Shown one piece after another: positions 4,569-34,385 of a DNA stretch of 34,646 nt. This DNA is from Synechococcales cyanobacterium bin2.concoct.b11b12b14.033 (GTDB lineage: Bacteria; Cyanobacteriota; Vampirovibrionia; Caenarcaniphilales; Caenarcanaceae). The stretch spans positions 1 through 34,646 of the forward strand of contig JAAFJH010000014.1 in the NCBI GenBank assembly GCA_013298875.1. The letters run 5' to 3'. The position numbers were made by a program, and so were the translations under genes. Positions within the stretch are counted from its first letter, which is position 1. Each line of letters starts with the position of its first letter. Below the pieces are notes generated by a model. That model was given only the letters and a program-made list of their open reading frames with translations. It made no database searches and was not told where the DNA came from.

Positions 4569-7500
4569 ATGCATATCAGTTCTAGTAAAAAATTAATTCC
4601 ATTTAATTCAAATACAGGTGTTAAAACTGGAAGGCCAATACAATCCCAAAAAATTGTAGCTGCTTCTTCTGAAGCCAAACATGGTTTACCAGGAACACCT
4701 TCCGAGTTTTCTAATGAAGCAGCTTCACAAATACTTGAAACTCAAAGAAAAATGGCTGAAGAATTTGCCAAAGAATCCGGAATTCCCTTAAAACAAGCAG
4801 CAAATCAGATTGAAAATTCAAATACAAAAATGAGTTTATTTTCAACGCCATTTCCCAAAGCGGGTCAAGACTTAAGTGGATTGGATCTAAGAGAGCATGA
4901 TTTAAGAGGAGCTGATCTTAGGGGATGCAAGTTTAAAGGCGGAAGGGAATTATTTGGTCTTTTAGAAAAAGGTTTTCCTAGGCTGCCTACTGATTTATCC
5001 GGTGTTAACTTTGCAGGTTGCGATTTAACAGGTGCAAACTTATCAGCTCATAATTTAACAGGAGCTAATCTGAGTGGTTGTAATGTGGAAAATACTAGGT
5101 TTCCAAGTAGATTGGAGGATGTTAATTTAAGCGGCTGTATTAATCTGCAAAAAGGTCAGTTGCCCCGTGAATTAGCTGGAGTTAATTTGAGTGAATGTAA
5201 TTTAGCAGGTTGGCATATGATGGATTTTAATTTGCGAGATGCCAATTTAACAAATGCTAATTTAACTGAAACCTCCTTCCGGAACGCTAATCTGTCTGGA
5301 GCTAACTTAACTAATGCTAATTTGAGAGAAGTAAGTTTTAGATTTGCTAACTTAACAAATGCAAATCTTACTAATTCTTCCTTGGAACTTGCTCATTTGG
5401 AGGGAGCCAATTTAACAAGGGCTAACTTGACAGATGTTGATTTAAATGGTGTAGATTTATCGAACGCTAATTTAACTGAGGCGGTTTTACCTCAGCCTCA
5501 AGCCGCCACATCAGAACAAACGCCTGTTGACTTAAGAGAGCAAGATTTAAGAGGGGGTTCAAAATTACAGGACGACTTAAAAAATGCTAATTTATCTGGT
5601 GCTAATTTATCTGGCAGGCAGGATTTGAGAGGCCTTGATTTATCGGGAGCCAATTTATCGGGAGCTAATTTAACAAGTGCTAATTTGTCTGGTGCTGATT
5701 TATCATCAAAAGCGAACTTAACAAAAGCAAACTTAACAGAAGCGAACTTAACAGAAGCTTCTCTAGAGAGTAGCTATTTATATGAAACAAAGTTACCTGG
5801 AGCCAATTTAACAAGTGCGAACTTAAGAAGAGCCTCTGTGGCAAATACTGATTTAAGCGGAGCTAACTTAACCGGAGCAAATTTAACAACCTCTGATTTT
5901 AGCTCAGTAAATTTATCCGGAGCCAATTTATCTGGTGCAATTTTTAGTGGAGCATTTCTAGCTCATTGTAATTTAATGGGAGCTAACTTAACCGGTGCTA
6001 ATTTCACAGATACAAGAAAGTTAAGTAATTGTAATTTAAGTGGAGCTAACTTAGCCGGAGCTGATTTAAGTGGAGCTGATTTAACCAGGTCTAATTTAAG
6101 TGGAGCCAATTTAACCGATGCCAATTTAACCGGTGCCAATTTAGGTAGGGCTGATTTAAGTGGAGCTGATTTTACAAATGTAATCGGCTTATCAACTGCA
6201 AATTTTAACGAAGCAGTAGTATCCCAAGAAGCATTACAGCAAATAAGAGCAGAAAGACAACTCAATAATCCACCTAGACCTTTAAGCTTTGTAGAATATG
6301 CAGGTGCCGCCCAAGAAGCATTTCCTTCCTTAGAGCAGTATCCTGAATTGAAAGTAACCACTAATGGCATCATTTTAGACGAAAGAAGTGGAATATTATT
6401 AGCTGTAACTGAAGTTCCCGCTGGGGAAGAATTTAATCTTGTATATAAGTTAACCTGCCCAGCTGATAAAGTTGGGTTACCCGAAAATAGTAGATTAACA
6501 GTTAGCGATCTTAGCTACCCTGAGGGGAATAGTCTTACAGTACAAGCTCAAAATGATGATAGAGACATTCAATTAAGATTCAGCGGTGAGCCAAAAGAGT
6601 TGTATTCGATCACGATTGAAGTTCCGGGAGAGGATGGCGGTGAGCCACGTATAATTAATTTGAGTCAGGAAACTGGCAAAGTATTTCCATTTTTGCAAAG
6701 TTTATTTCAGTCCCGGGAAAGACCACCTTTAAACTCAGCTGACCTAGCTTTAATTAATGAAATTACTGGTAAATCCCCACCAGCTGAATATGCCGCAGAC
6801 TTAATTTCGAGCCGGCCAGAAGATTGGTGGAAAGTATTGGCTCCTAATGTTTCCTTGGAAGAGTTAGAAAATACGTTAAAGCCCGGTGGAGCTTCTAGCC
6901 GTGGTTTTCTTGGCTCAGACGGTTCCCTAGAAGAAATAATGACAAGAGATAATCAAGTGGTCAAGAATCTTTATGGTTTAACTCATGCTGATTTGGCTTT
7001 ACCTTTACTGAAAGCCGTGAAAGCTGCACAAAACAGTGTAACTGGTACATTTGAGCATAATGGAGAGCAATATCAAGTGGAATCTTTTGGGTGGGTTGGC
7101 TCTCAAGTATCCCCTTTTGATGGACTAATATATCCTGGTGCCAATAAAGATCTTACTGTTACTAGGCTAAGCGATTCAACAAATTTTCAATTTCCAGGTT
7201 TAGAAGCTACTTTAGCTTTAGAAGGTTTTTATCAAGACACACAAAGCAGAACTCCTCCCGAGGCCATAGCTGAGTTTTTTGGGCTTAATGAAATTTCTGA
7301 AGATCAGCCAAATCAATCGGTTCAATCTAATGAAAGGCAAAAAGAGAGAGAGAGGCAAGCAAGATCATCACTTAACGAACAACAAATAATGCAAGCCCGT
7401 CGTTTAGGGTTGCCAGATACTGCAAGCGAACAACAAATAATTCCACAGCCAGATTCAGGTGGTGGTATTGGAACAGAAGCAATAATAGAAGAACCAAGAG

Positions 7501-7898
7501 GAGAAGCTAATCCCAAAGATCAAGTAACTGAGGCTGAACATCTAGGTAGGACAGATTCAGTCAGAGAAGATAACAACTCTAATGCGTCTATAACTGAAAG
7601 TGTAAACTCAGAAATTAATCAAGCAGAAGGCTTACCAGTTGATTCTGCTAACAAATCTAGAAATTTTTTGCCAGAACTAGAACTGCTTGCTAAAAGAAAT
7701 TATAATTTAGTATCTCAACTACCGTTTAAAGACGAAACAGTTATACCACCCACAGATTCACGTGTTTCTACCGGTGATAAAAAAGTAGTAACAGATAGTA
7801 CTCCCGACGATGGTATCTCAGACGGTGTGAGCCAGCCAGTAGTACAAATTCCAGTACAAATTTCATCAAAACAAGTAGAAAAAGTTTTGGTTCAATAA
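4569..7898 (+). CDS. giant two-solenoid pentapeptide-repeat protein with novel C-terminal half
   Basis: A 1109-residue protein with no signal peptide, so probably cytoplasmic. Residues 1-100 form a polar Ser/Asn-rich lead-in with a short helix around 48-85. Residues 101-306 and about 320-550 are two blocks of A(D/N)LxG/xx pentapeptides, which fold as right-handed quadrilateral beta-helices. Both blocks open with the same cap (DLREHDLRGA at 106-115, DLREQDLRGG at 321-330), and a Pro/Gln/Thr linker (308-319) separates them. From about 575 the repeats stop. A probable beta-rich segment (590-690) and a mixed globular segment (about 745-900, containing DWWKVLAPNVSLEEL and LTHADLALPLLKAVKAA) follow, then a polar, probably disordered Gln/Glu/Ser tail to 1109. 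The C-terminal half matches no family I can name. Known pentapeptide proteins include gyrase-protecting DNA mimics (Qnr, MfpA), but most have no known function; this one's role is unknown. Confidence 0.85.
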   Translation: MHISSSKKLIPFNSNTGVKTGRPIQSQKIVAASSEAKHGLPGTPSEFSNEAASQILETQRKMAEEFAKESGIPLKQAANQIENSNTKMSLFSTPFPKAGQDLSGLDLREHDLRGADLRGCKFKGGRELFGLLEKGFPRLPTDLSGVNFAGCDLTGANLSAHNLTGANLSGCNVENTRFPSRLEDVNLSGCINLQKGQLPRELAGVNLSECNLAGWHMMDFNLRDANLTNANLTETSFRNANLSGANLTNANLREVSFRFANLTNANLTNSSLELAHLEGANLTRANLTDVDLNGVDLSNANLTEAVLPQPQAATSEQTPVDLREQDLRGGSKLQDDLKNANLSGANLSGRQDLRGLDLSGANLSGANLTSANLSGADLSSKANLTKANLTEANLTEASLESSYLYETKLPGANLTSANLRRASVANTDLSGANLTGANLTTSDFSSVNLSGANLSGAIFSGAFLAHCNLMGANLTGANFTDTRKLSNCNLSGANLAGADLSGADLTRSNLSGANLTDANLTGANLGRADLSGADFTNVIGLSTANFNEAVVSQEALQQIRAERQLNNPPRPLSFVEYAGAAQEAFPSLEQYPELKVTTNGIILDERSGILLAVTEVPAGEEFNLVYKLTCPADKVGLPENSRLTVSDLSYPEGNSLTVQAQNDDRDIQLRFSGEPKELYSITIEVPGEDGGEPRIINLSQETGKVFPFLQSLFQSRERPPLNSADLALINEITGKSPPAEYAADLISSRPEDWWKVLAPNVSLEELENTLKPGGASSRGFLGSDGSLEEIMTRDNQVVKNLYGLTHADLALPLLKAVKAAQNSVTGTFEHNGEQYQVESFGWVGSQVSPFDGLIYPGANKDLTVTRLSDSTNFQFPGLEATLALEGFYQDTQSRTPPEAIAEFFGLNEISEDQPNQSVQSNERQKERERQARSSLNEQQIMQARRLGLPDTASEQQIIPQPDSGGGIGTEAIIEEPRGEANPKDQVTEAEHLGRTDSVREDNNSNASITESVNSEINQAEGLPVDSANKSRNFLPELELLAKRNYNLVSQLPFKDETVIPPTDSRVSTGDKKVVTDSTPDDGISDGVSQPVVQIPVQISSKQVEKVLVQ

Positions 7899-7927: not shown

Positions 7928-9145
7928 CTATTTTTTTTGAGGCTGAATAGAATAAGCTTTTTGAGTAATTTCCCCCGTCTCAATGTCGACTAAGACAGCT
8001 TTAATTTTTAATTCTTGATCAGTTTGGCTTTCACTAATAATTTTTAAAACCTGCTTAGCCGAAGAGATTTTTTGTCCATTTATTTCGGTTATTAAAGAGC
8101 CAACTAGCATGCCAGCTTTATTAGCAGCTCCATCAGGAGAAAGCTTGGCAATTAAAGCACCTTCTTTATAACCTTTATCGAGTAAATAAGCAGTTAAAGG
8201 ATTAGCGATTTCATTCAAATCAATTACTGAAACTCCTAATTGCATTCTTTCAACATGTCCTTTTTGTTTTAATTCAGTGGTAATTTTGAGGGCTAATTTG
8301 GATGGTACTGCAAAACAAATACCCTGATAGCCGCCCGACCGGGAAAAAATGGCTGTATTAATGCCAATTAAATTACCATCTGCATCAATTAAAGCTCCCC
8401 CCGAATTACCAGGATTAATGGCTGCATCCGTCTGAATAAAATCTTCTTGGTCGAGAATACCCAAATTATTTCTTTTGATAGCACTGACAATGCCCATGGT
8501 TACAGTTTGCCCAATGCCAAATGGATTACCTACTGCTAAGGCTATATCGCCAACTTGCAAATTATCCGATTCCGAAAATGGCAAATAAGGCAAGTCTTTT
8601 CCTTCAATTTTAAGTAAAGCCAAATCAGTTTTCGGATCCGCACCAATTAGCTTAGCTTCCGCTTGTTTGTTTTTATTTTCTTGTCCGTCTTCTGCTTCAA
8701 AGGAAATATAAATTTTATCGGCTCCTTTAATAACATGGCTATTAGTTACAATATAACCATCAGCAGAGATTATGACGCCCGAACCTAAACTTTTTTCGTG
8801 ACGATTTTGTGGCCCTAATAAAAATTCCTCTTCTCCTAAAAGTAAATCCCAAAACGAAGAAGAACGATGAATATTTTTTTCTGAAAAGACATTAACTACC
8901 GCTGATCTGGCTCTTTTGACGGCATGAGCATAACTTTGAGAATGATTAGTATTTTTTGAATAAATAGATTTATCTCTTTTTTCATCATTGGCATCAAAGG
9001 AATTATTGGATGGGTTAATAATATTTTTAATTTGTGGCAGTTGCCCGAATAATAAGCCTAAACCTAGCCCAAGCCCCAAAGCTAAAAAGACGGTAAACCA
9101 AAAATTAAGCGGTTTAACTGGTTTATGACTTGGATTATTTTGCAT
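7928..9145 (-). CDS. HtrA/DegP-family serine protease, membrane-anchored
   Basis: A 405-residue trypsin-like periplasmic protease for quality control of misfolded envelope proteins. One N-terminal transmembrane anchor lies at about residues 14-34 (FWFTVFLALGLGLG...). The catalytic triad is visible: His137 in IVTNSHVIKGA, Asp174 in DPKTDLALLKIE, Ser248 in NPGNSGGALID. A single PDZ domain occupies about 295-395 (AKLSPDGAANKAGMLVGSLI). The architecture of anchor, protease and one PDZ matches DegS or the cyanobacterial HhoA/HhoB/HtrA group rather than two-PDZ DegP. A low-complexity linker (about 41-75) follows the anchor. It converges with the pentapeptide gene, with 29 bp between their stops. 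No Shine-Dalgarno is seen before ATG 9145. Confidence 0.93.
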   Translation of the reverse strand: MQNNPSHKPVKPLNFWFTVFLALGLGLGLGLLFGQLPQIKNIINPSNNSFDANDEKRDKSIYSKNTNHSQSYAHAVKRARSAVVNVFSEKNIHRSSSFWDLLLGEEEFLLGPQNRHEKSLGSGVIISADGYIVTNSHVIKGADKIYISFEAEDGQENKNKQAEAKLIGADPKTDLALLKIEGKDLPYLPFSESDNLQVGDIALAVGNPFGIGQTVTMGIVSAIKRNNLGILDQEDFIQTDAAINPGNSGGALIDADGNLIGINTAIFSRSGGYQGICFAVPSKLALKITTELKQKGHVERMQLGVSVIDLNEIANPLTAYLLDKGYKEGALIAKLSPDGAANKAGMLVGSLITEINGQKISSAKQVLKIISESQTDQELKIKAVLVDIETGEITQKAYSIQPQKK

Positions 9146-11825: not shown

Positions 11826-12674
11826 TTACTTAATTATAAAATCGTCATCACCGTTCTGTGGCCGCCAACCCGGAAAGACCGACAGCATAAAGAATAATAG
11901 GCTTTGCTGAAATCTTCCAAACAAGGGATTATTAACGGTTTTAGACGATAATTTTTTAGGGATTAGATCGAGAGAAATATATTTGCAAAGAGCAGTACGC
12001 CCAAACCAAGATAATAAATAAGTTATACCACCAGATAAATTTTTAATATGTGCACGAGGAATATGAGCCAAAGCAATAACCGGAATTTTGCCTTCCTGAA
12101 CTTTTTGTAAATTGCTCATCCCAGCCTTCTTATCGAACTTATGACCAAAAAACCATTTACCAACAAAAAATAGAGGAAGCATTTTTAATGATATATTTAA
12201 TGCATTTTTTAAAGAAACATCTTTCGCTAATTGTTGTACTTCATGAATAGACTCAATTACTTCACTTGGTACAAAAAATGTATAATCAATAGCCGTAAAA
12301 ATAGTTGCAAAAATATCTAATGTTTTAATTATTAAATTCAAAGAGCCGCCTGAAAACACTCCTAATAAGCTTCCTAGCAAGCCGGCTGCTGCAAGACCTA
12401 AGCCTAGGACGCTACGCTCTTTACTAAAATAATTTTTGATATTTTGATAAGCTTCTTGGATTTTATTTATTAAAGATTCAGAGTCATTGCTTGAATTAAT
12501 GCTTTGAGAATTAACTTGGCTGGAATTAATACCCGAAATTAAAAAACTTGATTTGTTTGTATTTACTAATAAAGGAGGAGAAGAAGGACCTATATAATTA
12601 TTATTCTTGACAGAGCCTAACTGCTTGCTGTAAGTAAGACCTAAGGGTGAATTAAAGGAATTAACAACTCTCAT
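11826..12674 (-). CDS. membrane protein of unknown function, 282 residues
   Basis: Not recognised. The first ~65 residues are polar and Ser/Asn-rich (SSQVNSQSINSSNDSES) with no signal peptide. Hydrophobic stretches follow at about 88-112 (Gly/Leu-rich), 118-135, 164-176, and one near the C-terminus (LLFFMLSVFPGW). Between them lies a soluble stretch with VIALAHIPRAHIKNLSGG (two His), and the C-terminus is charged (NGDDDFIIK). It is flanked by the convergent carbonic anhydrase gene (43 bp between stops) and a 242-bp A/T-rich spacer upstream in which I see no clear promoter. The Ser/Asn-rich lead-in resembles that of the orphans at 25764-26879 and 4569-7898. Function unknown. Confidence 0.65.
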   Translation of the reverse strand: MRVVNSFNSPLGLTYSKQLGSVKNNNYIGPSSPPLLVNTNKSSFLISGINSSQVNSQSINSSNDSESLINKIQEAYQNIKNYFSKERSVLGLGLAAAGLLGSLLGVFSGGSLNLIIKTLDIFATIFTAIDYTFFVPSEVIESIHEVQQLAKDVSLKNALNISLKMLPLFFVGKWFFGHKFDKKAGMSNLQKVQEGKIPVIALAHIPRAHIKNLSGGITYLLSWFGRTALCKYISLDLIPKKLSSKTVNNPLFGRFQQSLLFFMLSVFPGWRPQNGDDDFIIK

Positions 12675-21666: not shown

Positions 21667-21740
21667 TCGGGATGAGAGGATTCGAACCTCCGACCCTCTG
21701 CTCCCAAAGCAGATGCTCTACCAAGCTGAGCCACATCCCG
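21667..21740 (-). tRNA. tRNA-Pro (anticodon TGG)
   Basis: Read on the minus strand, a 74-nt cloverleaf is visible: acceptor stem CGGGATG pairing with CATCCCG, D-arm around GGCTCAGCTTGGTAGAGC, anticodon stem-loop TCTGC-TTTGGGA-GCAGA with anticodon TGG, and T-arm GGAGG-TTCGAAT-CCTCT. The discriminator base is A and no CCA is encoded. TATAAT at 21764-21759 (minus strand), 19 nt upstream of the 5-prime end, is a likely -10 box. Confidence 0.97.
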
Positions 21741-25763: not shown

Positions 25764-26879
25764 ATGATTATAAAAGGTCAATCTACTCTCAAAAATTTTC
25801 ATAATAATAATAGTACTAGTAAGTTTCGAAGCTCAAAATCTTCATTACAAAGCATAAAGTATGGCTTAGCCATAGCAACTATTCCTCTTTCGGCTTTATG
25901 GGCAACTTCGGCTACTTTTTCTCATTTAAGTTCAGCTAAAGATAATCCTTTTTTAAATTCTTTGGTTTCTAATCAAAATCTTTTGGCTTCGCTTATATTT
26001 GCCGCTGTAGGAACTTCTGGCTTTTTGAGCATGTATCCATTACGTAGTATAAATTTTGCTTTAGCTTCTTTAGGCACTTTGGCTGGTTATTTTGCCGTTA
26101 ATGCCGAAGCTGACGAAGATAAAAAACATAATATTTTACAAGTTTTGGAAGCAATGGTAATTGGCTTTTTGGGTGGAGCGGCTGTTTCTAAAGCTAATGT
26201 AGCTTATAATTCTTCTAATTTAAGTTTGGAATTCTCCACTGTAAATAATTTAACTGATATAAAAAAAGGTTGGCAAAATAATTTTACAACCGAAACAAAA
26301 ATTTTAAGAGAGCAGCTTTTTAATTTACCTTCTTTAACGAAAGACTTTTTCACTGGGTCCTCAAGCGGTATTAAAAATGTGTTTTATCCAAGCTCCGAAT
26401 TTAAAAACCTAGGTAAATTAGATAGATTTAGGGGAGCGGCTACTAAATATGGCACTAATTGGTCGAGCGGAGCTTTTCAACTTACGGGAATAATGCGGCT
26501 TTTAGCTTGTGGTTTAAGTCTTTCTTCAATTTTTTTGAAAGATGATAAACAGAATAAACACTCTGAAAAAGCAGATCCTTTAGCAAATACTAGCAGTTGG
26601 TTAGTCAGTCTTAGCTTGATTCCAGCGGCTATTGCGGCTTTAAGTAAGAATAGTAAATGGGCGAATCTTCCTAATTTATTATTTAATGCTTCGGCTTTAT
26701 TAGCTATACCGGGCTTAGTTTTAAAATTAATGCCTGAAAGCTGGATTAATAATCTTTTTGGTGAAGACAAGGCCAAATCAGTTAATGATTTTATTAAAAT
26801 AGTAGGTGGTTTATTTACAAAATTATTAATTGCACTGCAAATGTTGGCTTATGCTTTATCGCAATGCCTCAAAAAATAA
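25764..26879 (+). CDS. polytopic membrane protein of unknown function, 371 residues
   Basis: Not recognised. A polar Ser/Asn/Lys-rich N-terminus (residues 1-32, NNNSTSKFRSSKSSLQS) is followed by four hydrophobic segments (about 34-52, 73-90, 96-113, 125-141). A ~95-residue soluble region comes next (about 145-235: YNSSNLSLEFSTVNNLTDIK ... TKYGTNWSSGAFQ), then four more segments (about 236-258, 274-293, 302-322, 345-368). This gives roughly eight helices arranged 4+4 around a soluble loop. No catalytic or transporter signature is seen. The gene has its own promoter and lies between yidC and the LuxR-type regulator gene. The N-terminal lead-in resembles those of the orphans at 11826-12674 and 4569-7898. 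Confidence 0.65.
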   Translation: MIIKGQSTLKNFHNNNSTSKFRSSKSSLQSIKYGLAIATIPLSALWATSATFSHLSSAKDNPFLNSLVSNQNLLASLIFAAVGTSGFLSMYPLRSINFALASLGTLAGYFAVNAEADEDKKHNILQVLEAMVIGFLGGAAVSKANVAYNSSNLSLEFSTVNNLTDIKKGWQNNFTTETKILREQLFNLPSLTKDFFTGSSSGIKNVFYPSSEFKNLGKLDRFRGAATKYGTNWSSGAFQLTGIMRLLACGLSLSSIFLKDDKQNKHSEKADPLANTSSWLVSLSLIPAAIAALSKNSKWANLPNLLFNASALLAIPGLVLKLMPESWINNLFGEDKAKSVNDFIKIVGGLFTKLLIALQMLAYALSQCLKK

Positions 26880-27894: not shown

Positions 27895-28662
27895 TTAATA
27901 AGCACCTTGGTCTTGCAACCATTTTAAGCTAGAGGTGGCGGCTTCTACGTCTTGATTGTCTATTTTACCATCGGTCTTTAAGTCTAAAAATTCTTTATAC
28001 TTATCAGTGCATAGCTCTCCGCCAGATTGACAATCAGAACTTACTTGAGTCCAAATATCATTGCTTAAAGAAGGTATGCCAGCCATTAATTTGTACTTAT
28101 ATTCGTCTCCGACCGCTAGACCATTTACCTGACCCGTTTCAAAAATAAATTGTAAAAGCCCTCCAATTTGCTGGCTGACCTTACCATTAGAAGAAGTTGA
28201 GAGAGCAATATTCACTAATTTAGCAAAGAATTTGCGGCCTTTATACTTGCTAAAATATTTTTCAGCCATTTCCAAGTCATTATCATTAAAACCGGTCAAT
28301 TCAAATACTCTTGCTTTACTTTGCGGATTAGTGGCTATATATTCGATTAAACTTCTTAATTGATTGTATTCAGTTTCGGACAGATTAGAAATATTATTAG
28401 AAAAAACTTTGGCTAAAGTACGTTTTGTATCCGGTATTAGACGAGCTTTAACTGGCCCCCAAACCGCTTGTGGATTAAAAACTGGCACTGACTGTATGCT
28501 AGCCTGCCCAGATAATAAATTAGGAGTATTATTAGCAGGCGGTGTTGGATTAGCGGGAGGCATTTCAGCCGGACTTATTTGGTTTTGATATTCATAGTAT
28601 TCATCGCTAGCTTCAGTATAAGCAATATAAGCACTTGGTGGTTGAGTATAGTCGAGTGGCAT
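27895..28662 (-). CDS. orphan with C-terminal EF-hand/dockerin-like motif
   Basis: Not recognised. I place the start at ATG 28662 (255 residues): a TATAAT box on the minus strand at 28701-28696 puts transcription start near 28689, downstream of the TTG codons at 28719/28716 that would add 19 residues. The N-terminal ~70 residues are Tyr/Pro/Asn-rich and probably disordered (ISPAEMPPANPTPPANNTPN). Residues 75-215 are mostly helical (LSETEYNQLRSLIEYIATNP, NDLEMAEKYFSKYKG). Near the C-terminus DLKTDGKIDNQD resembles a 12-residue EF-hand or dockerin calcium loop but has Lys at loop position 3. Two Cys (CQSGGELC) lie just before it. No signal peptide is visible. It converges with the regulator gene, 4 bp between stops. 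Confidence 0.6.
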   Translation of the reverse strand: MPLDYTQPPSAYIAYTEASDEYYEYQNQISPAEMPPANPTPPANNTPNLLSGQASIQSVPVFNPQAVWGPVKARLIPDTKRTLAKVFSNNISNLSETEYNQLRSLIEYIATNPQSKARVFELTGFNDNDLEMAEKYFSKYKGRKFFAKLVNIALSTSSNGKVSQQIGGLLQFIFETGQVNGLAVGDEYKYKLMAGIPSLSNDIWTQVSSDCQSGGELCTDKYKEFLDLKTDGKIDNQDVEAATSSLKWLQDQGAY

Positions 28663-28695
28663 TTTGAATATTAAGTTAGAGGTAAGGTTAGTTTC

Positions 28696-28701
28696 ATTAT
28701 A
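28696..28701 (-). promoter_or_regulatory. predicted -10 box that decides a start
   Basis: TATAAT on the minus strand, ending 34 nt before the ATG at 28662. No convincing -35 box is present. It favours the ATG over the upstream TTG pair as the start of the downstream orphan. Confidence 0.35.
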
Positions 28702-28749
28702 AAAAGTTTCTGCCAACAATGAATGAAACTCTTTATAAACTACTGAATT

Positions 28750-29799
28750 TTATTTTAATAATTCCGACAAGGCATCAATGAAAGAAACTTTTGTATATAA
28801 ATTTACGGCCGTATCAGCTGTATTGGTTAAGTTATTAACAGTTCCGCTTAATAAATAGGCATTACTTAAAAACCTTTGCCAATCAACACTTTCGCTAGGT
28901 AATTTTTCACCTTGAGAAATATTAATTGCCATAGGCATATCACTTTCTGAGCTGCCAAGCGAGCGATAATATTGATAATTGTAGTTTTTAAATTGTTTGA
29001 CTTTTTCAATTGTGAATATATCAGGCGAAGCATTTGAAGAATTATTATCTTGTTTAAGATTTTGTGAAATAAGCAATAAAATTAATAGCTTTTGATTTTC
29101 GTCTGGACTTAAAGTTTTTTCTTTACTTTTACTAAGTAAATCAATAGTTTGTTCCTTAACTTTTGTCTCTAAATTATTATTAACTTTAAAGTCATTTGTA
29201 TTTGTTAAGTCTTTACTAGAAATTAACTCTGTTCTTTGTTTATTCGTTAAATAGCTTGGGTCATAATAGCTTCCAGTAAAATTCGAGAAAAAATCTCTAT
29301 TAATTCCATCAAAAACTGCTCCACTGATATTGCTTTTGTTGATATTTACTTTTTTAAGATTTGCACCATTAAAATTTGCCTCAACCAAATTAGAATTTTC
29401 AATGCCAGCCAATTTTAAATTTGCACCTTCAAAATTTGTATAAGGAGCGTTTACTTGGTTTAGGATAGCCCAGTTTAAGTTAGCATCCTTAAAATTCGCA
29501 TAAGTTAGATTTGCTTTACTAAAATTTGCCCATTTCAAGTTGGATTTCTCAAAATTAGCATTTTCTAAATTACTGCCTTGAAAGTCTGTCGCACTTAAAT
29601 CTTCGCCTATGAATTTTAAGTTTCTCAAATCCATATTTCTAAGTTTTTGTTTGGATAAAGAAGATACTTTTAAATGCTGTTTTAATTCCTGTATATTTTC
29701 AAAAGCTATCGTCTTCAAAGACTGGAAGAATGTACAAATGATCAAAGAAAGCTTTAGGTAGAAATAAAGTTTATTAATTTTTGAATTAATTTGGTTCAT
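28750..29799 (-). CDS. exported pentapeptide-repeat protein
   Basis: A 349-residue protein. A hydrophobic segment near residues 12-31 (FYLKLSLIICTFFQSLKTIA) is a signal peptide or anchor, so the repeats face outside the cytoplasm. Pentapeptide repeats occupy about 45-165 (DLRNLKFIGEDLSATDFQGS then NLENANFEKSNLKWANFSKA), giving about 20-24 repeats, or roughly five to six coils. The remaining C-terminal half (about 185-349) is helical, rich in Asn/Lys/Ser (SKEKTLSPDENQKLLILLLI) and unlike any family I recognise. Repeats here are A/N-F and N-L with bulkier residues than in the giant protein at 4569-7898, so the two are not recent duplicates. Function unknown. Confidence 0.8.
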   Translation of the reverse strand: MNQINSKINKLYFYLKLSLIICTFFQSLKTIAFENIQELKQHLKVSSLSKQKLRNMDLRNLKFIGEDLSATDFQGSNLENANFEKSNLKWANFSKANLTYANFKDANLNWAILNQVNAPYTNFEGANLKLAGIENSNLVEANFNGANLKKVNINKSNISGAVFDGINRDFFSNFTGSYYDPSYLTNKQRTELISSKDLTNTNDFKVNNNLETKVKEQTIDLLSKSKEKTLSPDENQKLLILLLISQNLKQDNNSSNASPDIFTIEKVKQFKNYNYQYYRSLGSSESDMPMAINISQGEKLPSESVDWQRFLSNAYLLSGTVNNLTNTADTAVNLYTKVSFIDALSELLK

Positions 29800-32847: not shown

Positions 32848-34350
32848 TTAAGATAAATTAAGAAATAATCCTTTCACTTTTTCTCCGATCTTCGAAACGA
32901 GTTTTTCTGGATCTCTTGCATCCTGAGCCTTATCTTCGTCATTAGCTTTTTTATATGTTTCTGGATCAAATCTTTGGGTTAAAAATGAAGGGGCAGATTT
33001 CTTTTCTTCTTCGGTTATTGGTCTGACTAGTAAATTTGCGTTTTTATAACCAGTTGCAAAATCAGAGCTGAAATTATTATCTCCTCTAACTTTAAACTGA
33101 GAGTAAAAATCTCCATCACCATTTAATATTGTAATTTGTCCGTTTGGATATTTTGCTTTTGCAACATTTAGTATATCTTTTTTAGACATTGCTGGAGTTG
33201 AAACGGCTGACATAAATTGACCATTTACAAATATCAAAGCTGATCTTGTTTCTCCTCTTTCTTGATTTGAAGATATTTGCAAGTCTGATTCCCGTAAAAC
33301 TTCAAATCCGATATTAATTGAAATTATACTGTGGTCTTGCTTTAGCTCAGCAATTTTTGCCTCAACTTGTTCCTCAGTACTTCCTCTAAGGTCTATTAAT
33401 TCAATTGAACCATCTTGCTTCGATACATAGCCTCCTGTCTTTTCCAAAATACCAAATATACTACCTTTACTCTCAAAAACTTGACCATCTGGTTTCTTAA
33501 AGTACCTATAGCCTGTCGGTGTTTTATTATCTTCAATAAAGCCAGTTCCTAAAATTCCATCAATTATTAAACCTTGTTGTCTTAAAATTTTTTCTGCTTC
33601 TTGTAAATCTGTTGATGGACTTGGTATTAAAAAAGATTTTGGATTAGTTCTTTCAACAAAGACATTTGACAAATGAATATTTGCTTTTTGGACATTATAC
33701 TTTTCTACTTCTCTATTTTGATTTGCAATTATATAATACTCAGTTCCATTTTCAAGGAAAAAGCGGCCTTTGATAGAGGAATCTTTATTATTCCAAGAGT
33801 CTTTATTATTCCAAGAGTCTTTATTATTCCAAGAGTCTTTATAAAACAGTCCTTTTCTAGTAAGTATTGAGGGATTATTTTCATCAGGAAAACTAAAAAA
33901 ATATTCTTTTGGCTTATTGGTATTCTTGTCGATTTCTAGCCTATTACTTTCTTCTAAGGTTTTTAGTGGGTTTTCTAAATCTCTTGGTTTTGTTGATGTT
34001 AAAGCTATATTTCCAGCCATAAGATTTCCATTTTGATTACTAAGAGAAAGGCTTGATATATTAGTGTAAGTTTCCGGAGGATTCTTTTCTAAAGTATTCA
34101 ACAAATCTATAACCCATTTATTTTTGTTATTACTAAAGTCAATAATATTTTGATTTTTTACATGGCTCTCAAATTCATCCGTACTTATAATTTGATCACC
34201 GTTTGTATCAGCTTTTTCCACTGAATTTAAGAAAGAAGAAATTCTGTCATTTCCTTCATTTGTAAAAGCGTTAGAAAGTTGTAATTTTTTTCTTAAAGGT
34301 TCTATTTGATTAAAATTAAGGTTTCTTTTTAGATATAGATAATCAGCCAT
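32848..34350 (-). CDS. EF-hand protein with possible degenerate glycosidase-like domain
   Basis: I choose ATG 34350 (500 residues) over an upstream TTG at 34383, because a predicted promoter at 34413-34386 would start transcription between them and GGGAAAGAG precedes the ATG. A canonical EF-hand loop lies at residues 48-59 (DTNGDQIISTDE, all calcium ligand positions filled). Residues 170-191 are a perfect triplicate of KDSWNN from an 18-bp tandem repeat. The C-terminal region (about 341-420) has a motif order reminiscent of the phosphodiester glycosidase gene at 2849-4048: ETRSALIFVNGQFMSAVSTP, a spaced helix, then QITILNGDGDFYSQF where that enzyme has AINLDGGGST. If related, the site is degenerate. 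No signal peptide. The family is otherwise unrecognised. Confidence 0.6.
   Translation of the reverse strand: MADYLYLKRNLNFNQIEPLRKKLQLSNAFTNEGNDRISSFLNSVEKADTNGDQIISTDEFESHVKNQNIIDFSNNKNKWVIDLLNTLEKNPPETYTNISSLSLSNQNGNLMAGNIALTSTKPRDLENPLKTLEESNRLEIDKNTNKPKEYFFSFPDENNPSILTRKGLFYKDSWNNKDSWNNKDSWNNKDSSIKGRFFLENGTEYYIIANQNREVEKYNVQKANIHLSNVFVERTNPKSFLIPSPSTDLQEAEKILRQQGLIIDGILGTGFIEDNKTPTGYRYFKKPDGQVFESKGSIFGILEKTGGYVSKQDGSIELIDLRGSTEEQVEAKIAELKQDHSIISINIGFEVLRESDLQISSNQERGETRSALIFVNGQFMSAVSTPAMSKKDILNVAKAKYPNGQITILNGDGDFYSQFKVRGDNNFSSDFATGYKNANLLVRPITEEEKKSAPSFLTQRFDPETYKKANDEDKAQDARDPEKLVSKIGEKVKGLFLNLS
33783..33842. repeat. 18-bp tandem repeat inside a coding region
   Basis: Three identical copies of CTTTATTATTCCAAGAGT (33783-33800, 33801-33818, 33819-33836) followed by a partial fourth. 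18 is a multiple of 3, so the repeat encodes exact copies of a six-residue unit (KDSWNN, minus strand) and copy number can change without a frameshift. Confidence 0.95.
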
Positions 34351-34385
34351 AAGTTCTCTTTCCCTGAGTAGAAATATATTCAAGC

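What the first reader, a model, noticed from the sequence alone, without database searches (positions are those of the whole stretch)
4569..7898. Giant two-solenoid pentapeptide protein with an unrecognised C-terminal half
About 450 residues of A(D/N)LxG repeats form two blocks (101-306 and 320-550), each opening with nearly the same cap (DLREHDLRGA and DLREQDLRGG), which points to duplication of a whole solenoid with its cap. The following ~550 residues contain a beta-rich segment, a globular segment with Trp-Trp and LTHADLALPLLKAV, and a disordered tail, none of which I can assign. Pentapeptide solenoids of this size fused to a new domain could be a scaffold or effector. Seen directly: repeats, caps and boundaries. 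Inferred: the duplication and domain split.
Basis: partly seen in the sequence, partly recalled or inferred. Interest (0 to 1): 0.6.

Follow-up and report, generated by a model that had tools for sequence, protein, structure and literature searches.

The report
Pentapeptide protein with shared family tail
A large bacterial protein from a non-photosynthetic relative of cyanobacteria joins two pentapeptide beta-helices to a middle domain found nowhere else we searched and to a tail shared with five other big proteins of the same genome whose bodies differ, so it looks like one of a lineage-specific set of modular, probably exported proteins.

Summary
The 1109-residue ORF (4569-7898, +) is real and coding throughout. 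Two pentapeptide solenoids (about 101-307 and 331-552) are confirmed by Pfam, AlphaFold2 (mean pLDDT 76; linker 310-329 below 40) and Foldseek. The proposed duplication of a whole capped solenoid is not supported: each block resembles other pentapeptide proteins of this lineage better than it resembles its partner, and the 'cap' is just two pentapeptides. Residues about 560-925 match nothing in Pfam, NCBIfam, PHROGs, PADLOC, PDB, phage or plasmid records, or 381 other genomes of the same class, including one of the same genus; a single-sequence fold gives no usable model. The 'disordered tail' is the real finding: its blocks recur at the C-terminus of five other large ORFs of this genome (553-1403 aa) with other bodies, and in no other genome sampled. 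Sequence order is a lysine/serine-rich start, a variable body, a Pro/Gly linker and a conserved tail. The organism is related to Caenarcaniphilales (Melainabacteria). The genome keeps flagellar-type export-gate genes, but one rod/hook-domain search found nothing. Best reading: one of a lineage-specific set of exported modular proteins; the export route is inferred. New variant of a known kind.

The parts
4569..7898 (+). whole ORF, 1109 aa
   Evidence: codon-position G+C pattern
4569..4868 (+). residues 1-100: polar, Lys/Ser-rich start with no Asp/Glu in residues 2-28; no family match; no hydrophobic signal peptide visible
4869..5486 (+). residues 101-306: pentapeptide solenoid 1 (about 10 coils)
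   Evidence: Pfam; AF2; Foldseek
5493..5558 (+). residues 309-330: flexible linker between the solenoids, containing DLREQDLRGG
   Evidence: pLDDT 28-37 for residues 310-329
5559..6224 (+). residues 331-552: pentapeptide solenoid 2 (about 11 coils), entered by a short helix 331-338
   Evidence: Pfam; AF2 pLDDT mostly 84-95
6225..6266 (+). residues 553-566: C-capping helix of solenoid 2
   Evidence: AF2
6333..6668 (+). residues 589-700: beta-rich segment (Ig-like alternation, by eye), no family match
   Evidence: low-confidence strands only
6669..7343 (+). residues 701-925: mixed alpha/beta segment with WW and LTHADLALPLLKAV; found only in this genome
7437..7895 (+). residues 957-1109: C-terminal tail shared with five other large ORFs of the genome
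   Evidence: hold-out weak
7449..7508 (+). tail block 1 (PDSGGGIGTEAIIEEPRGEA), 81.7% DNA identity over 60 bases to the 553-aa ORF of contig C23
7742..7797 (+). tail block 2 (around DSRVSTGDKKVV), 80.4% DNA identity over 56 bases to C23; 89.7% over 39 bases (7755-7793) to the 964-aa ORF of C88

Best explanation
The protein is one of at least six large modular proteins of this lineage. Most read as a disordered start, a variable body, a Pro/Gly-rich linker and a conserved disordered C-terminal tail. In this member the body is two rigid pentapeptide beta-helices followed by a beta-rich and an alpha/beta segment. The shared tail most likely acts in a step common to all six, such as export, chaperone binding or anchoring, while the variable bodies do the specific work, probably binding outside the cell (adhesin- or effector-like), with the beta-helices as stiff spacers or binding faces. 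The most likely route is the flagellar-type export gate that this genome keeps. Shown: the architecture, the shared tail, restriction of tail and body to this genome among those sampled, presence of export-gate genes. Inferred: export, its route, and the binding function.
For: Tail shared by six ORFs with otherwise different bodies. P0001 tail vs C23 tail: local score 120, Z 12.9, shuffle p 1.5e-7; other pairs up to Z 20.8. DNA identity of 80-90% in two tail blocks. In 381 other genomes of the class the best match to the tail model is E 0.022, against 8e-25 or better in this genome. Three of the four tail proteins with a clear ATG start have no Asp/Glu in residues 2-28 and the fourth has one; 13 of 80 control ORFs have none. 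Export gate: full-length FHIPEP protein (669 bits) on C95, FlhB on C1 and FliH on C95. No Flg_bbr_C rod/hook domain in this genome; only one, FlgC-sized, in each of two sister genomes. No VirB4. Soo et al. 2014 (PMC4040986) report Melainabacteria (Gastranaerophilales) with partial flagellar gene sets that would not make a functional flagellum.
Against: No experimental or direct computational evidence of export; N-terminal composition is a weak signal. With P0001 left out, the tail model built from the other five finds it only at E 0.018, no better than an antisense ORF, so its membership rests mainly on the C23 and C88 pairs. The FHIPEP and FlhB proteins score below the curated cut-offs of both the flagellar and the injectisome models. 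Absence of hook proteins rests on one domain search in a 93% complete assembly. The neighbouring genes are housekeeping. Type I or other routes could not be searched.
Confidence: 0.4

Rival explanations
1. Cytoplasmic or envelope scaffold: the tail is an intracellular docking motif (for example for a PDZ domain, such as that of the neighbouring HtrA-type protease), and the solenoids hold partners together.
For: No classical signal peptide; the convergent neighbour 7928-9145 is an HtrA-type protease with a PDZ domain; several tails end in hydrophobic residues.
Against: The six C-termini are not uniform (VLVQ, SV, TGV, VSS, LSN, VLA). The same-genus HtrA gene has quite different neighbours, so the pairing is not conserved.
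Confidence: 0.25
2. Surface protein exported by another route, with the C-terminal tail as an uncleaved signal as in type I secretion.
For: The conserved signal-like part is at the extreme C-terminus, with short hydrophobic ends.
Against: No RTX-type repeats or neighbouring ABC exporter were seen in the loci read. A type I system was not searched for genome-wide.
Confidence: 0.15
3. Fast-evolving lineage-specific ORFs whose tails are alike by local duplication and recombination, with no common transport function.
For: Tail identity is at DNA level in short blocks. A tandem pair on C88 keeps both ends (88.6% and 97.3%) with unrelated middles, and one copy is frameshifted.
Against: Tail blocks sit at the extreme C-terminus in all six proteins on five contigs, and the reading frames are long and intact.
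Confidence: 0.15
4. Gyrase-protecting DNA mimic of the Qnr/MfpA type.
For: Pentapeptide beta-helix; Foldseek lists Qnr and MfpA.
Against: Scores far below the curated Qnr and MfpA cut-offs; solenoids are not notably acidic (D+E 12% and 8%); two blocks on a 1109-residue protein.
Confidence: 0.03

Closest known systems
Pentapeptide repeat superfamily (PF00805), e.g. HetL (3du1) and the synthetic beta1 solenoids
   Same: Quadrilateral beta-helix; best sequence and fold matches
   Different: Two helices in one chain plus an unassigned body and a family tail; HetL equivalog cut-off not reached (244.2 vs 260 bits)
SopA/NleL, type III effectors with an N-terminal pentapeptide domain fused to a ligase domain (PMC8145042)
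   Same: Large protein, pentapeptide domain followed by another domain; NleL is among the sequence and fold matches, over the solenoid only
   Different: No HECT-like domain match; two solenoids; unrelated C-terminal domain and tail; no demonstrated secretion
PipB/PipB2 effectors
   Same: Pentapeptide-rich secreted proteins; partial matches of 171-198 bits in the repeats
   Different: Below the curated cut-offs of 274 and 354; the PipB models are 291-350 positions long with no unassigned body or shared tail
Other large pentapeptide ORFs of the same family of genomes (L058 899 aa, L059 918 aa)
   Same: Polar start, pentapeptide blocks, unassigned C-terminal parts
   Different: No shared tail and no similarity to residues 560-925

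Membership tests
[quoted passage not shown]
   PF00805 299.7 bits, 13 stretches
Pentapeptide repeat superfamily | quadrilateral beta-helix fold | tested here: met
   AF2 pLDDT 76 and Foldseek matches to HetL, beta1, Qnr, MfpA; predicted, not solved
Qnr/MfpA gyrase protection proteins | score above curated model cut-off | tested here: not met
   117.8 vs 240 (Qnr), 77.9 vs 360 (MfpA) bits
Qnr/MfpA gyrase protection proteins | acidic, DNA-like surface | tested here: inconclusive
   composition only: D+E 12% and 8%, K+R 8% and 6%; no electrostatics computed
SopA/NleL E3 ligase effectors | HECT-like catalytic domain | tested here: not met
   no match of residues 560-925 in Pfam, NCBIfam or PDB sequences; PRK15377 83.4 vs 500 bits, repeats only
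Type III secreted substrate | translocation by a type III apparatus | not testable with these tools
   needs a secretion assay; export-gate genes are present
Shared-tail family of this genome (described here) | C-terminal tail with the linker block and the DSRV..TGE.KVV block | tested here: met
   vs C23: Z 12.9 and two DNA blocks; but hold-out model only E 0.018

The most novel reading that the evidence does not exclude
A lineage of non-photosynthetic cyanobacterial relatives has turned the export gate of a lost flagellum into a secretion system for a private set of large proteins that share their ends and exchange their middles, this protein being one of them.
Probability: 0.15. Interest if true: 0.8.

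Novelty: new variant of a known kind. Interest (0 to 1): 0.45.

Why it matters
How Melainabacteria deal with other cells is largely unknown, and their partial flagellar gene sets have no assigned use. A private set of large proteins with a common tail and different bodies gives concrete candidates for what those export genes might carry, and a tail that can be tested as a signal. The unassigned domain adds a protein fold question with a defined boundary (residues about 560-925).

Tried and rejected
Duplication of a capped solenoid: rejected, since A-B is not the best pair; the unit-shuffle control in that call breaks the repeat register and was not used. Structure of residues 561-924 from a single sequence: mean pLDDT 38.4, not used for fold search. 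Weak class-wide matches to the C-terminal domain (best E 0.003-0.009, 26-27% identity, an autotransporter-like repeat ORF, L027): judged chance. Viral contigs, phages and plasmids: no relatives. Tail alignment search of viral contigs could not run, being too diverged. The 458-aa ORF on C88 looked like a seventh tail member but does not pass the model (not listed at E 1 with the six-row model, E 1.8 with P0001 held out). HtrA as a functional partner: neighbourhood not conserved. Type IV secretion: VirB4 family absent. Promoter and terminator scans gave no more than shuffles. Two paper searches returned nothing.

Full report
What is there. The ORF at 4569-7898 (+) is 1109 codons with an ATG start. 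Its codon-position composition is that of a gene, also in the unassigned half. It lies between a phosphodiester-glycosidase-type gene and a small ORF upstream and a convergent HtrA-type protease, among housekeeping genes (argS, lysS, gatB, gyrB, yidC). A protein conserved in the same genome and its same-genus relative finds its closest named relatives in Candidatus Caenarcaniphilales/Caenarcanales MAGs; the window's genome is therefore a relative of that group (Melainabacteria), 2.15 Mb, 145 contigs, 93% complete.

The solenoids. Pfam, NCBIfam and PDB sequence searches place pentapeptide repeats over residues 101-550. AlphaFold2 on residues 90-600 without an alignment gives mean pLDDT 76, with two beta-helices, a linker at about 310-329 below pLDDT 40 and a capping helix at 553-566. 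Foldseek matches are pentapeptide proteins. Solenoid A and solenoid B are no closer to each other (score 283) than to other pentapeptide proteins of this family of genomes (B: 361, 349, 413; A: 311). The genome carries pentapeptide repeats on ten contigs, so a common repeat consensus explains the likeness. The 'cap' is a pair of pentapeptides.

The unassigned body. Residues 560-925 have no match in Pfam, NCBIfam, PHROGs, PADLOC or PDB sequences, in phage, plasmid or viral contig collections, or in GTDB contigs by peptide pattern. A search of 382 genomes of the class finds it only in its own genome, not even in the same-genus genome, which is 88% complete. A single-sequence fold is useless (pLDDT 38). 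Strand pattern and composition suggest a beta-sandwich-like part (589-700) and an alpha/beta part (701-925); this is inference.

The tail. Reading the other pentapeptide ORFs of the genome showed similar C-termini. A four-row model found a fifth member, a 1403-aa ORF without pentapeptides, at E 6.3e-8, and a weak sixth, a 553-aa ORF, at E 0.10. A six-row model over 382 genomes gives E 8e-25 or better for six ORFs of this genome and nothing below 0.02 elsewhere. These values include training rows; the fair tests are as follows. Held out one at a time, five members are recovered at E 3e-12 to 3e-5 but P0001 only at 0.018. Shuffle tests of pairs give P0001-C23 Z 12.9 (p 1.5e-7), with other pairs up to Z 20.8. 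At DNA level P0001 shares 81.7% over 60 bases and 80.4% over 56 bases with C23, and 89.7% over 39 bases with the 964-aa ORF on C88, all in the tail. P0001 is thus a member, but a divergent one. Two members lie side by side on C24 with 83% and 73% DNA identity in the linker and tail and otherwise unrelated bodies. A separate tandem pair on C88 keeps 88.6% and 97.3% identical ends around unrelated middles, one copy being frameshifted. Exchange of bodies between conserved ends is the simplest reading.

How it may work. The start of P0001 has no acidic residue in positions 2-28 and is rich in Lys, Ser and Asn; two other members share this and a fourth has one acidic residue, against 13 of 80 control ORFs with none. 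The genome has a full-length FHIPEP export-gate protein, FlhB and FliH, but the rod/hook C-terminal domain was not found in it, and only one FlgC-sized protein, beside an FlgB-like one, in each of two sister genomes. VirB4 is absent. Soo et al. (PMC4040986) note Melainabacteria with subsets of flagellar genes that would not build a flagellum. I therefore think export by the flagellar-type gate the most likely route (within an overall confidence of 0.4), with a binding role outside the cell. Export, route and role are inferred, not shown.

Comparison. It is a member of the pentapeptide superfamily by repeats and predicted fold. It is not a Qnr, MfpA, HetL, PipB2 or SopA/NleL equivalog by curated cut-offs. 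The summed repeats do pass the cut-off of the small Alr5209 family model (203 vs 125 bits), which I attribute to the many repeat copies. The architecture resembles pentapeptide effectors such as SopA and NleL (PMC8145042), with a different body and a family tail.

Verdict. The new points are the tail family and the restriction of the body to one genome among those sampled.

Noticed in passing
G000 contig C88: L097 5787-7639 and L021 569-2727: Tandem pair of ORFs with 88.6% identical 5' ends and 97.3% identical 3' ends (running into the next gene) around unrelated middles; the left copy is frameshifted. Suggests exchange of bodies between conserved ends, or an assembly effect.
   Followed up: partly
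L123 10154-12328, L124 810-1883 and 17381-18013, L125 7803-8726: Export-gate genes scattered on separate contigs: a full FHIPEP protein, FlhB, and a second FHIPEP copy holding mainly the cytoplasmic part, split across the ends of C118 and C1.
   Followed up: partly
L128 3169-4020 and L129 4923-5745: In two sister genomes an FlgB-like and an FlgC-like gene stand together with no other rod or hook gene next to them; no further Flg_bbr_C domain was found in those genomes.
   Followed up: partly
window 11826-12674, 25764-26879, 32848-34383, 27895-28719: Long ORFs without any credible family match; the first two begin with polar, Lys/Ser/Asn-rich starts like the tail proteins.
   Followed up: no
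window 28750-29799 (-): A second, smaller pentapeptide protein (349 aa) with a hydrophobic signal-like start.
   Followed up: no
L095 11693-13584: A POTRA/beta-barrel (ShlB/FhaC-like, by eye) outer-membrane transporter gene directly after the 1403-aa tail protein, with a masked stretch inside.
   Followed up: no
window 21667-21740 (-): tRNA gene (Rfam RF00005, 68.8 bits).
   Followed up: no
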